Shown here: positions 13,891 through 51,255 of the stretch, piece by piece
How positions within the stretch are numbered: the first letter of the stretch is position 1
How the letters are laid out: the number at the start of each line of letters is the position of its first letter
DNA from: Halodesulfovibrio sp. MK-HDV
GTDB taxonomy: Bacteria; Desulfobacterota; Desulfovibrionia; Desulfovibrionales; Desulfovibrionaceae
DNA length: 62,638 bases
Direction: 5' to 3'
Assembly (NCBI RefSeq): GCF_009914765.1
Contig: NZ_WYDS01000005.1
Span: 161,648-224,285, forward strand
Notes under the pieces: model-generated
The model's database searches: none
What the model saw: the letters and a program-made list of their open reading frames with translations, nothing else
Told to the model about the DNA's origin: nothing
Position numbers and translations under genes: made by a program

Positions 13891-14273
13891 CAGATCTTCG
13901 ATGTGCCTCCGGCGGGTCTCCGACGGGCAAGGGCGCTGCCCTGCACCCGCAAGGGGGACGCCCCCTTGACCGCGATTTTGTTGCGATGGTCATTTTACGA
14001 ATAAAGTTTTCACGCGGCTTAATCCCACTGACTTGAACGATGTACGAGCATAGTTCAATTTACTAGAAAAATACCCCTTAGTGATTCGAGTAAGTGGCAA
14101 TTAAGCCGCGTGAGAACGTAATAAACGGGCATGCATCGCATAATAAAAGTTTTAGGAAAGGGGTCTGGGGGAGAACCCTTTTCCAAAAGGGTTTCCCCCA
14201 GCCGCCGGAGGCAAAAAGTAATTATAAAAAAAGTCCCACTGATAAGCGCCGCCGGAGGCTCATCGAAGATCTG
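13891..14273. repeat. Palindromic intergenic element B, with 25-bp terminal inverted repeats
   Basis: The ends, 13891-13915 and 14249-14273, are inverted copies of each other over 25 bases with one mismatch. Inside are a GC-rich hairpin cassette (13950-13968, stem CAAGGGGG/CCCCCTTG), the CGCGGCTTAA and TTAAGCCGCG half-sites, an AATAAAAGTTTTAGGAAAGG module, and a long hairpin at 14165-14201 (CTGGGGG paired with CCCCCAG around AACCC and GGGTT). This copy lacks the central terminator hairpin. It lies between eno (its 3' side) and the flavodiiron gene (its 5' side). Confidence 0.8.
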
Positions 14274-14287
14274 TTAGAAATAAGAAT

Positions 14288-14323
14288 AAAAAAAAAGCCG
14301 GAACGCAATGCGTTCCGGCTTTG
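14288..14323 (-). terminator. Terminator of eno
   Basis: On the minus strand GCCGGAACGCA pairs with TGCGTTCCGGC and is followed by about ten T's, directly after the enolase stop codon. Confidence 0.9.
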
Positions 14324-14347
14324 ATGCTGTGCTGTTCGGAGCGAGGG

Positions 14348-15637
14348 TTAGTCGCCGAGGCCGAAGTGAGCTGCCATGAATGGACCGAAGAAGATGCCAT
14401 CGTCGTCGAGGTCTTCTTCGATACGGAGGAGCTGGTTGTATTTAGCGAGACGGTCGGAGCGGGAGAGGGAGCCGGTTTTAATCTGACCAGCGTTAACTGC
14501 CACAGCGAGGTCTGCGATAAAGCTATCTTCAGTTTCACCGGAGCGGTGAGAAATAACTGTAGAGTAAGCAGCGCCTTTAGCCATTTCGATGGTGTCGAGG
14601 GTTTCGGTAAGAGTACCAATCTGGTTAAGTTTAATCAGAATGGAGTTAGCGCAACCTTCTTCGATACCTTCAGCAAGGATTTCAGGGTTGGTTACGAAAA
14701 TGTCGTCACCAACGATCTGAGTGGAAGGAAGGCGATCTGTAAGAAGCTTCCAGCCTTCCCAATCCTGTTCTGCAAGGCCATCTTCAATGGAGATGAGCGG
14801 GTATTTTTCAGTAAATGCTGCGAGCCATTCAACCAATTCTTCAGAAGTAAGGGTTTTGTTCTCGCCAGCAAGAACGTACTTGCCGTCTTTGTAGAATTCA
14901 GAAGCAGCAGCGTCGATGGCAAGAGCAATTTCTTTACCAGGAACGTAGCCAGCAGCTTCGATAGCTTTCATGATGTAGTCAAAAGCTTCTGCATGGCTTT
15001 CGAGGTTAGGTGCAAAGCCACCTTCGTCACCAACGGAAGTAACGTGACCGTCGTTGGAGAGAAGTTTCTTCAGTGCGTGGAATACTTCTGCGCCCATGCG
15101 GAGTGCTTCTGCAAAAGTAGGAGCACCGATCGGCATGATCATGAATTCCTGAATATCAAGGTTGTTTGGTGCATGTTCGCCACCGTTGATGATGTTCATC
15201 ATTGGTACTGGAAGCACTTTAGCGTTGATACCACCGAGGTACTGGTACAAAGGCTGGCCGAGGAAGCTAGCGGATGCACGTGCAACTGCGAGAGAAACAC
15301 CGAGCATTGCGTTAGCGCCGAGGCGTTCTTTGTTTTCAGTGCCGTCGAGTTCGAGAAGGATGTTGTCGATGTTAACCTGACGGGTTGCGTCGAGGCCGAT
15401 AATGCCTTCAGCAATTTCGCCCATTACGTTGTTAACAGCAGTCTCAACACCTTTGCCGAGGTAACGGTTCATGTCACCGTCACGCAGTTCAAGCGCTTCA
15501 CGGGTACCGGTGGATGCGCCGGATGGAACTGCAGCACGGCCGGAGTGACCGGATTCGAGGGAAACTTCAACTTCGATGGTAGGATTGCCGCGGGAATCCA
15601 AAATCTCTCTTGCCCAAACGGAAACAATAGTACTCAT
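14348..15637 (-). CDS. eno: Enolase
   Basis: This 429-residue glycolytic enzyme converts 2-phosphoglycerate to phosphoenolpyruvate. The N-terminal [11 protein letters not shown], the [11 protein letters not shown] loop and the C-terminal [11 protein letters not shown] active-site segment are all present. The start at 15637 has AAGGAGT seven bases upstream; a 16-codon upstream extension is unsupported. coaX lies upstream on the same strand, 78 bases away. Confidence 0.96.
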
Positions 15638-15715
15638 TCTATAACTCCTTGTAGTCCGACCGATTTGGCCGTTCTTTTCTGACAAATAGTATAAAAACGA
15701 TGGTGACTCGGCTCG

Positions 15716-49349: not shown

Positions 49350-49377
49350 ATTATATTCCTATGCTATTTTCGGCTGT

Positions 49378-49407
49378 CTTGATTGAGTTGCATCAAGAAA
49401 ACTTGAT
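49378..49407. promoter_or_regulatory. Paired ATCAAG/CTTGAT palindromes, probable SahR operator
   Basis: CTTGAT at 49378-49383, ATCAAG at 49392-49397 and CTTGAT at 49402-49407 form two overlapping inverted repeats. The compact one is ATCAAGaaaaCTTGAT. They lie about 30 to 60 bases before the sahR start, where an operator for the sahR-ahcY operon is expected. Confidence 0.65.
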
Positions 49408-49851
49408 ACAGCTTTATCTAAGGTTTGAGATACAGTCAAGTAAATCAACCGTGAATAACAATTAGTGCAATTCTCGCAAAAGCATTGGGGGAAAACAGTT
49501 TCCGACTTTCATAATTGCGCTACTCATGGATACTTCGCACTATGAAAAGAGCAGTTTCATGATTGAGTGGTAATAAATAAGATATACTGAATTTTAGATA
49601 CTGGTGAAGAAAGTTATAAGGCGTAACTGTTGATGGGTAGAGACTTTTATTGAATACGGTGGTCTTATTTTATTGATAATTCAGATTTTTATGGAACTTG
49701 TTCAGGACAAAATTCTTGCATGTGTTCTCTGCTTGCTATACTGCTTGCCCGAAGTACACAGGCATAAAAAATATTACGGATAACTTAGCTTGCAGATAGA
49801 TTTTGCTGCGAGAAATCCGCACAGACTGCCTGCTCAACAGGAGCGTTTTCA
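49408..49851. other. Intergenic region between divergent sahR and the FUSC gene
   Basis: AT-rich with no gene or RNA recognised. Promoters for both genes lie here but are not obvious. Confidence 0.4.
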
Positions 49852-50901
49852 ATGTTGTTTCCAGGTTCGCGCCAGCGAACAGAATTTATCAAGTATGGTG
49901 TAAAAACCGCACTTGCTGCACTTCTTTCTTATGTTCTAGCATCACTTACTGACCCGGACTTGGGTTTCTGGGCTGTTATTAGCGCTGTTATTGTTATGCA
50001 GCGTAACGTTGCCGCGTCTATGCAGATGTGCGGGTACCGTCTTGTGGGTACTGCCATCGGTGCGACAATGGGCATGACAGCTCTATATCTTGTTCCGCCT
50101 ACAGATCATGGTCGCCTTGCAGGATTCCTCGTAACAGTAGGGCTTTGCGCATATCTTAAGCGTTATACAAACCGCTTTTCTATGGCTGCTATCACCGTCA
50201 CCATCGTTATGCTCGCTCCGCAAGCCTCTGGTGACTACATCCAATATGCCCTCTTTCGCGTAGCAGAAATTAGCATCGGTGTGTGTTCAACATTCATCGT
50301 TGCGCTTCTTATCTGGCCACACCATGCAAGCGAAGAACTTAAAGAGCGCTTGCAGGAACAGTTCACGCGCTGTGCAGATAAATTCGAACTCATCATAGAC
50401 TCATTCATGGCTCTCAAGTGTGATACCTGTAAAGGCATGCTTATCGATCTTGAAGACGAAATTCACTACAATAGAGAATTGTTTCGTGGTTACCTGCGTC
50501 ATGAGCGGTTATTTGTTGATGACGATTCAGCCATGCTCGATATTAAAATTGAGACTCTCGTGCAAAGTGTAGAGCACTTGCGTGCCATGCTGCATGTTGT
50601 GCACGAACTCCGAGACAGTGATTACTGCATCATTATGGAAGCTGAAATTCGTAAAGTGGTGAAAGAATCGCAGGATGTAATGCGTGCGATCGGGCGAAAT
50701 GTTATTCCTGACAACCGCAAGTTGCAGCAAGCTTTGTTCAGTGCAGATAAGCGGCTGGAACATCTGCGTGAAGAAGGGATGATTCAGCGTATCACTATGC
50801 GCGACATGATGCAGATTGTAAGCTTTTACCACAGTGCCCAACAGCTTGGTGAAGATTTGATTATCTCTATTAAGAAGCAGAATAAGTACAAACGCGTTTA
50901 G
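49852..50901 (+). CDS. FUSC / aromatic-acid exporter-like membrane protein
   Basis: A 349-residue protein with about six membrane helices in the first 160 residues and a large helical cytoplasmic domain after them. The pattern GFWAVISAVIVMQRNVAASMQ and GYRLVGTAIGATMG is typical of the FUSC/AaeB/ArAE group, which export aromatic acids or act in resistance. The substrate is unknown. AGGAGCG supports the start. Confidence 0.82.
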   Translation: MLFPGSRQRTEFIKYGVKTALAALLSYVLASLTDPDLGFWAVISAVIVMQRNVAASMQMCGYRLVGTAIGATMGMTALYLVPPTDHGRLAGFLVTVGLCAYLKRYTNRFSMAAITVTIVMLAPQASGDYIQYALFRVAEISIGVCSTFIVALLIWPHHASEELKERLQEQFTRCADKFELIIDSFMALKCDTCKGMLIDLEDEIHYNRELFRGYLRHERLFVDDDSAMLDIKIETLVQSVEHLRAMLHVVHELRDSDYCIIMEAEIRKVVKESQDVMRAIGRNVIPDNRKLQQALFSADKRLEHLREEGMIQRITMRDMMQIVSFYHSAQQLGEDLIISIKKQNKYKRV

Positions 50902-50920
50902 TTTTTAGCTTGTGTTTTGT

Positions 50921-51255
50921 TTGCCTCCGGCGGGCAGGCTCTGCCTTGCATCCGCAAGGGGGAGGCCCCCTTGACCGCCATTATGGGGGAGTCTTTTTTG
51001 TTTGTTCTTTAGTATGATAATACGTGGTTACGAACAAATTTAGATAAAGAAATCAGGTGTACTAGCTTTATTGAGAAGCGAGAGTATACTGATAGTCGTG
51101 ATTTTAGCTTGGAACTGTTGACCATTGTTTACGGTCAACAACTCACCTGTACGTCAACGCAGTCGAGAGGGCGTCCCTCTCGCGGGGATGCAAGGGGCTG
51201 GCCCCTTGCCCGTCGGAGACAAAAGAATTCAAGCACCGCAGTCTGCCGGAGGCAT
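50921..51255. repeat. Palindromic element I, two arms around a unique core
   Basis: The left arm (50921-50983) has TTGCCTCCGGCGGGCAGGC and the hairpin CAAGGGGG/CCCCCTTG (50955-50973). The right arm (51157-51255) has CGAGAGGG/CCCTCTCG (51164-51182), CAAGGGGCtgGCCCCTTG and the ends CGTCGGAGACAAAAG and TGCCGGAGGC. The middle, about 170 bases, is not repeated elsewhere in the window and carries the hairpin GTTGACC/GGTCAAC at 51117-51139. This copy lies between two genes in the same direction. Confidence 0.72.

What the first reader, a model, noticed from the sequence alone, without database searches (positions are those of the whole stretch)
13891..51255. A family of modular palindromic intergenic elements
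Copies at about 13.9, 20.7, 26.1, 31.3, 40.6, 43.4, 46.7 and 50.9 kb, and a scrap at position 1, share a set of modules. These are the end GCCGCCGGAGGCTCGTCGAAG, the ATTACGGATA module, AATAAAAGT(T/C)TTTGGAGAG, CGCGGCTTA/TAAGCCGCG and the central GGGCTGTCC/GGACAGCCC. The modules occur in mirrored order around the centre, so each full copy is one imperfect palindrome of 350-400 bp. No coding frame lies inside. I know of no described family with this structure; it could be a MITE-like element, a REPIN-like system or a terminator island.
Basis: partly seen in the sequence, partly recalled or inferred. Interest (0 to 1): 0.82.

Follow-up and report, generated by a model that had tools for sequence, protein, structure and literature searches.

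The report
Palindromic repeats built around gene terminators
Some sulfate-reducing marine bacteria carry dozens to around a hundred copies of a non-coding, mirror-symmetric repeat that sits around the stop signals between genes, differs from species to species at the same site, and in the stretch studied here marks the places where the chromosome has been cut and rejoined.

Summary
The repeat is genome-wide: 134 arm matches at 96 loci in a 4.17-Mb genome, also in five congeners but not in four more distant ones. Anatomy: end hairpin, arm L, two-way terminator hairpin (GGGCTGTCC..GGACAGCCC), arm R, end hairpin. Terminator and end-hairpin stems show two-sided compensatory changes; arm-to-arm pairing hardly does. 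Of 43 gaps, 31 are convergent, 12 codirectional, 0 divergent. In 43 orthologous gaps of four relatives the arm profiles find no arm in 27; several of these are decayed copies, but nine of 13 loci have a relative that looks clean by eye. In the window, convergent junctions with an element are broken in 16 of 23 comparisons, those without in 0 of 14; genome-wide breakage at element loci is lower (10 of 53). No RAYT transposase in any of ten genus genomes; no Rfam match at gathering score. Best reading: a terminator-centred mosaic repeat that is gained, decays and recombines, like BIMEs in kind but without their enzyme; how it spreads is unknown.

The parts
1..60 (+). tail (11-mer repeats, GCTCGTCGAAGAC) of an element whose arm and end hairpin lie just outside the window
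   Evidence: C5:161524-161642; window starts at C5:161648
13891..14270 (.). element at 13.9 kb: end module E2, L arm (13971-14037), no GGGCTGTCC centre, second L arm (14085-14153), end hairpin E1; beside the enolase terminator, which is also seen in G005, G008, G009 and G001
20663..21078 (+). full element: end hairpin with insert, L arm (20767-20833), terminator hairpin (20844-20877), R arm (20885-20950), end hairpin with ATTACGGATA insert, 11-mers
26062..26380 (-). full element in the other orientation: end hairpin, R arm (26136-26201), degenerate centre, L arm (26247-26313), end hairpin; lies between two other terminator-like hairpins
31296..31667 (+). full element: ATTACGGATA module, E2, L arm (31413-31477), terminator, R arm (31524-31588), end hairpin, 11-mers
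36913..36962 (+). stand-alone centre-type terminator hairpin without arms
40589..41215 (-). two elements in tandem (arms at 40677-40740, 40790-40850, 40905-40968, 41018-41082)
43450..43498 (-). isolated ATTACGGATA-type insert module, no arms or centre
46648..46870 (+). half element: terminator (46648-46681), R arm (46690-46752), end hairpin with insert
50916..51220 (.). inverted pair of E2 end modules around unrelated DNA; no arms or centre hairpin

Best explanation
The repeat is a dispersed mosaic element of Halodesulfovibrio-type sulfate reducers. It is laid out as a mirror image around an intrinsic terminator that can work on both strands. Its parts are two related arms (L and R, about 65 nt), each with an end hairpin on its outer side. 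Arms and ends are gained, decay and are exchanged around terminators in 3' intergenic space, mainly between convergent genes. The terminator outlives them and serves as stop signal of the flanking genes. Because dozens of copies lie in both orientations, recombination between copies inverts gene blocks at these junctions and swaps half-elements. Shown: copy number, geometry, gene context, compensatory change in terminator and end hairpins, differences in arms at orthologous sites, and breakpoint enrichment in the window. Inferred: that copies spread by a mobility process, that recombination between copies made the rearrangements, and that the terminators work in vivo.
For: 96 loci; of 38 multi-arm loci 36 are divergent arm pairs, 2 are in the same direction and 0 convergent; the centre is 47-51 nt in 26 of those 36. 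Of 40 distinct arm pairs in the loci held, 32 are LR, 6 RR, 2 LL (the set leans to R-type queries). 33 of 40 centre hairpins have an arm within 60 bp, 7 do not. Context: 31 convergent, 12 codirectional, 0 divergent of 43 unique gaps, against 9 divergent of 31 window gaps over 60 bp. Ortholog gaps: no arm found in 27 of 43, with at least one such relative at 13 of 13 loci; nine of the 13 loci (L003, L005, L010, L012, L015, L016, L023, L025, L029) have a relative that looks free of the element by eye. At 46.7 kb G005, G002 and G008 have one GGCTG..CAGCC terminator and no arm or end hairpin, while G000 has terminator, arm and end hairpin and G009 the same in decayed form (by eye). Centre hairpins are slightly more alike at the same locus across species than at different loci (73.9 against 71.7%; permutation p 0.008; 48 hand-picked hairpins). 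Breakpoints: 16 of 23 at convergent element junctions, 0 of 14 at convergent junctions without, 1 of 160 over all scorable junctions without. A rearrangement in G009 joins the left flanks of two element loci, with element sequence at both new junctions (by eye).
Against: No transposase, target duplication or clean insertion boundary was found. 'No arm' includes decay: five of the 27 gaps hold end-module motifs, and by eye at least six (L004, L005, L014, L023 and L029 in G005; L017 in G008) look like remains, so loss is as well supported as gain. A terminator was detected in only 16 of the 27. Orthologous arms are no more alike than non-orthologous ones (73.2 against 72.7%, 15 against 467 pairs, p 0.39), so descent, gain and replacement cannot be told apart. 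Breakpoint counts are pseudo-replicated: one inversion gives two breaks, species share history, and only five element and three other convergent sites could be scored. A further break in G001 between 51.7 and 53.6 kb, where no element was noted, fell among the 25 unscored cells and is not in the count. Genome-wide, 43 of 53 scorable comparisons at element loci are intact. Arms may follow rearrangement rather than cause it. One of the covariation measures (further pair types) does not exceed the shuffles for the end hairpin.
Confidence: 0.58

Rival explanations
1. Non-autonomous transposable element (MITE-like) that inserts as a whole unit, terminator included, beside existing terminators and is moved by an unidentified transposase or recombinase; relatives without arms are unoccupied sites or sites where only the terminator was kept.
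For: Fixed order with L-terminator-R in 32 of 40 pairs. At L005 G000 carries the whole unit beside a terminator that G009 has alone (by eye). GGCTG-type centre hairpins number 17-47 in the six arm-bearing genus genomes and 1-7 in the four without arms.
Against: No Y1 transposase; no gene called inside the gaps; no target duplication recognised; only L005 shows this clearly (at L004 the relative G005 holds an end-module pair and decayed arms beside the shared terminator); centre hairpins share locus-specific similarity with armless relatives; one copy finds no match in the plasmid and phage collections.
Confidence: 0.23
2. Host structure maintained by selection as a strong two-way terminator or mRNA 3' stabiliser, spread only by vertical descent and gene conversion.
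For: Compensatory changes in terminator and end hairpins; no divergent gap among 43; fold z-scores -6.5 and -9.2 for two full copies, 100 shuffles each.
Against: No arm found at 27 of 43 orthologous gaps while the gene pair stays, decay included; other terminator-like hairpins already flank the 26.1-kb copy; hairpin stems can also be kept perfect by mutational template switching (recalled, not tested).
Confidence: 0.14
3. REP/REPIN system with a RAYT transposase.
For: Extragenic, palindromic, paired inverted modules.
Against: PF01797 found in 0 of 10 genus genomes, control positive in 5 of 14; unit far longer than a REPIN (recalled).
Confidence: 0.03

Closest known systems
BIME/REP elements and REPINs of enterobacteria and pseudomonads
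   Same: Mosaic of short palindromic modules in 3' intergenic space, many copies (recalled; PMC1525189 seen only in a search listing with the start of its abstract)
   Different: Centre is a terminator hairpin; arms of about 65 nt; no RAYT found in the genus; no REP sequence was compared
BOX, RUP and SPRITE repeats of Streptococcus pneumoniae (PMC3049150, abstract read)
   Same: Structured dispersed repeats thought to be parasitic and reduced in a sister species; tandem copies occur here too
   Different: That abstract does not describe them as built around a terminator; no open frames found here; no sequence comparison was made
Rho-independent terminators
   Same: Centre hairpin with A and T tracts; centre hairpins without arms exist (7 of 40)
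   Different: Here the hairpin is a dispersed near-identical sequence enclosed by two repeated arms and end hairpins
Group IIC introns, which insert at terminator hairpins (recalled; one search gave nothing useful)
   Same: Association with terminators
   Different: No intron-like match in Rfam at gathering score in the window; no gene inside

Membership tests
REP/REPIN (RAYT-associated) | RAYT/Y1_Tnp transposase encoded in the genome | tested here: not met
   found in 0 of 10 genus genomes; control 5 of 14
REP/REPIN (RAYT-associated) | many extragenic palindromic copies | tested here: met
   96 loci; the 43 unique gaps examined lie between called genes
MITE | terminal inverted repeats | tested here: met
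   mirrored arms and end modules, though end module types vary
MITE | target site duplication and empty sites | tested here: inconclusive
   no arm in 27 of 43 ortholog gaps, part of them decayed; no duplication recognised by eye
MITE | autonomous partner with the same ends | tested here: inconclusive
   only PF01797 was searched; no gene inside the gaps examined; other transposase families not searched
Rfam families | score at or above a gathering threshold | tested here: not met
   0 matches over the window against 4227 families; a permissive search of 20600-26500 gave 12 matches, all under gathering score, best E 0.061
Intrinsic terminator (centre module) | GC-rich hairpin followed by T run, both strands | tested here: met
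   consensus scan finds it on both strands at 20.84 and 31.49 kb (39 sites in the scanned region against 23.6 in shuffles); termination itself not testable here
pneumococcal BOX | boxA-boxB-boxC sequence modules | not tested
   no BOX sequence was compared

The most novel reading that the evidence does not exclude
A selfish repeat whose core is a two-way transcription terminator: it lands beside terminators in 3' intergenic space, its terminator takes over from the host one and is kept after its arms decay, and its inverted copies make junctions between convergent genes the recombination points that reorder the chromosome. Inverted pairs of the same end hairpins in other genera of the family suggest an older group of such terminator-enclosing elements.
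Probability: 0.26. Interest if true: 0.75.

Novelty: new variant of a known kind. Interest (0 to 1): 0.55.

Why it matters
If right, terminators are not only local signals but parts of a repeat family that spreads, is recruited as gene ends, and sets where chromosomes can be rearranged without breaking operons. That makes the origin of new terminators and the placement of inversion breakpoints testable in one culturable genus. It also supplies a repeat family to recognise in comparative genomics of sulfate reducers.

Tried and rejected
RAYT/REPIN: rejected for a resident enzyme. Known structured RNA: no Rfam match at gathering score; 12 sub-threshold hits in a permissive search of one stretch. 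tRNA-derived element: no tRNA or tmRNA in the window. Spread on plasmids or phages: no match for one copy. A degenerate arm pattern gave 14 viral contigs, but the arm profiles found no convincing arm in them (best E 0.12), so they are taken as chance. A conserved long arm-to-arm helix: 1 of 15 axial pairs has a two-sided change, against 7 of 11 in the terminator and 9 of 14 in the end hairpin, so the palindromy of the arms is sequence conservation, not shown pairing. Vertical descent of arms: no locus-specific similarity; the test is weak because the arms are short, intergenic DNA is far diverged and the G000 set was chosen as best matches to one copy. Ancestral terminator type: in 11 stretches fetched from three arm-free congeners the terminators seen by eye were of other sequences (at L004, L016, L017) or the genes abut (L012; L010 in G004; L023 in G006). 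Literature: searches gave no description of this family in the open-access library. Rows dropped before counts: L088 (contig end) and L138, L141 (hairpins without arms) from the context count; locus L008 had one flank missing in all four relatives and L007 is broken in all four, so neither is among the 13 loci, hairpins judged by eye not GGCTG-like and loci L005, L014, L020 and some window sites; copies with inserts or atypical right arms from model R1.
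Full report
Origin of the window. The window lies in a 4.17-Mb, 54-contig genome (G000:C5:161648-224285). A degenerate arm pattern, scanned once over named genome contigs, hit only Halodesulfovibrio spirochaetisodalis JC271 and a Halodesulfovibrio MAG (records near the own genome may be left out there). From this I infer that the genome is a Halodesulfovibrio or close kin; it is unnamed. In H. spirochaetisodalis (L059) the element lies between convergent genes: by eye end module E2, arm-like sequence, terminator, R arm (48 bits), end hairpin, then another terminator.

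The repeat is real and genome-wide. One copy (31296-31667) matches 78 places in its own genome, itself included. A covariance model of R arm plus end hairpin (R1, 21 sequences) gives 134 matches at E up to 0.01, with 150 of 1978 first-look candidates scored, so the true number may be higher. They form 96 loci; 38 have more than one arm, of which 36 are divergent pairs, 2 in the same direction and none convergent; the centre is 47-51 nt in 26 of the 36. The centre pattern RGGCTGTCCN{4,12}GGACAGCCY occurs at 40 sites with 0 for the reversed control; 33 have an arm within 60 bp and 7 do not. Contig C5 holds 20 of the 96 loci in 224 kb.

Anatomy. From outside in: 11-mer repeats (GCCGCCGGAGGC, TCGTCGAAGAC and kin); an end module, either hairpin E1 with interchangeable stems (TTAAG, CCAGAG, CCTAAG or CTGGGG types) or module E2 (GGGCAAGGG..CCCTTGACCGCG); an arm of about 65 nt; the terminator hairpin with A and T tracts. 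Two arm types exist. In 40 distinct pairs 32 are LR, 6 RR and 2 LL; loci were collected mostly with an R-type query. Among the 15 loci fetched by the hairpin pattern alone (15 of 40), 8 are LR, 1 RR, 1 LL, 3 have one arm and 2 none. The arm profiles were themselves built from these copies. The ATTACGGATA module sits in the loop of E1 in several copies. Folding gives z -6.5 and -9.2 for two full copies; the 26.1-kb copy folds as a junction with two end hairpins as side arms and the terminator at the tip. Two-sided compensatory changes support the terminator stem (7 of 11 pairs) and the end hairpin (9 of 14); the arm-to-arm helices have 1 of 15. The structures came from the same alignments, related sequences can exceed the shuffles without structure, and 'further pair types' does not exceed them.

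Context. In 43 unique own-genome gaps the element lies between convergent genes in 31, between codirectional genes in 12, and between divergent genes in none; window gaps over 60 bp are 8 convergent, 14 codirectional and 9 divergent. A simple codon-based gene caller was used. No gene was called inside the gaps of the 75 locus windows.

Distribution. R1 matches: G009 91, G001 55, G008 41, G005 24, G002 10; none in G003, G004, G006, G007 (150 candidates scored per genome). Matching coding stretches are about 71-90% identical in the first five and 65-79% in the last four. Weaker matches occur in other genera: G016 26, G013 6, G033 2, G046 0. In the examples read there, inverted pairs of E1 hairpins, or E1 with another end module, enclose intergenic DNA, once with a clear terminator (L131).

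What relatives have at the same sites. Fifteen own loci were followed into G005, G009, G002 and G008: of 60 comparisons 43 gene pairs are adjacent, 10 broken, 7 lack a flank. Of the ten, L004 in G002 may be a contig-end effect and L015 in G009 is a 5.9-kb separation in the same order. In the 43 adjacent gaps (13 loci) the arm profiles find no arm in 27 and at least one in 16; each of the 13 loci has at least one relative without a detected arm. A terminator was detected in 16 of these 27. Simple motif patterns find end-module traces in 5 of the 27, and by eye at least six are decayed elements. Nine of the 13 loci have a relative that looks clean by eye, and so do 46.7 kb (G005, G002, G008) and 20.7 kb (G002) in the window. 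Two patterns appear. At L005 a terminator shared with G009 lies beside the whole unit in G000, as if the unit had been inserted whole. At 46.7 kb and L029 a half-element is attached to a terminator that relatives without arms also have. In four arm-free congeners centre-type hairpins number 1-7, against 17-47 in the arm-bearing genomes. Centre hairpins keep a weak locus-specific similarity across species (p 0.008); arms show none (p 0.39).

Rearrangement. Mapping 44 gene junctions of the window onto five relatives gives 220 cells, 25 of them unscored. Convergent junctions with an element are broken in 16 of 23 scorable comparisons, convergent junctions without one in 0 of 14, all junctions without one in 1 of 160 (elements flagged by hand). 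A further break in G001 between 51.7 and 53.6 kb falls in unscored cells. The block 26.4-31.3 kb is turned relative to the antiporter gene in G005 and G008; in G001 it has R1 matches at both ends. The G005 junction antiporter/hypF has no element, only a terminator, which is against a need for the element. In G009 the left flanks of loci L025 and L008 are adjacent, an apparent inversion between two element loci, with element sequence at both new junctions by eye. The comparisons are not independent, and the genome-wide sample (10 broken of 53 scorable) shows fewer breaks than this window. Recombination between inverted copies is an inference.

Tests of known kinds. RAYT: none found. Rfam: none at gathering score. 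Plasmids, phages: none for one copy. In RepRanger (PMC12306157, passages seen) 'desulfo' occurs three times in the main text, none of them Halodesulfovibrio. The pneumococcal repeat paper (PMC3049150, abstract) is the best comparison in kind.

Verdict. A real dispersed repeat family, undescribed within the searches named; a new variant of the known kind 'small structured intergenic repeats', set apart by being built around a two-way terminator and by coinciding with synteny breakpoints in this window. Mobility mechanism and function are open.

Noticed in passing
flanks of many copies, e.g. window 40589-40640 and L029 right flank: Arrays of 11-12-base units (GCCGCCGGAGGC, TCGTCGAAGAC, GTCTCCGACGGC, CGCTTGTCAGCG) extend beyond the elements and look like a micro-repeat system of their own.
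   Followed up: no
L052 1496-2507 (G001), L114 1531-2088 (G001), window 40675-41093: Whole or near-whole elements in tandem: 353-bp unit x2.9 at 94% match, 293-bp unit x1.9 at 92%, and the 228-bp-spaced pair in the window.
   Followed up: partly
G000 contig C5: 20 of 96 loci lie on one 224-kb contig while C3 (at least 235 kb) has one; cause unknown.
   Followed up: no
L108, L109, L116, L131 (G016, G013): End hairpins in inverted pairs enclose unique intergenic DNA, once with a clear terminator, in other genera of the family.
   Followed up: partly
window 50916-51220; same site in G005 (L154): Inverted E2 pair in a codirectional gap; G005 keeps only a single 11-mer-like unit there.
   Followed up: no
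G004:C13 positions 388, 2396, 3675, 6029: Four hairpins of the GGCTGCCC..GGGCAGCC kind within 6 kb in an arm-free congener; perhaps another repeat.
   Followed up: no
window 17976-20639: Large ORF with weak multiheme cytochrome matches.
   Followed up: no
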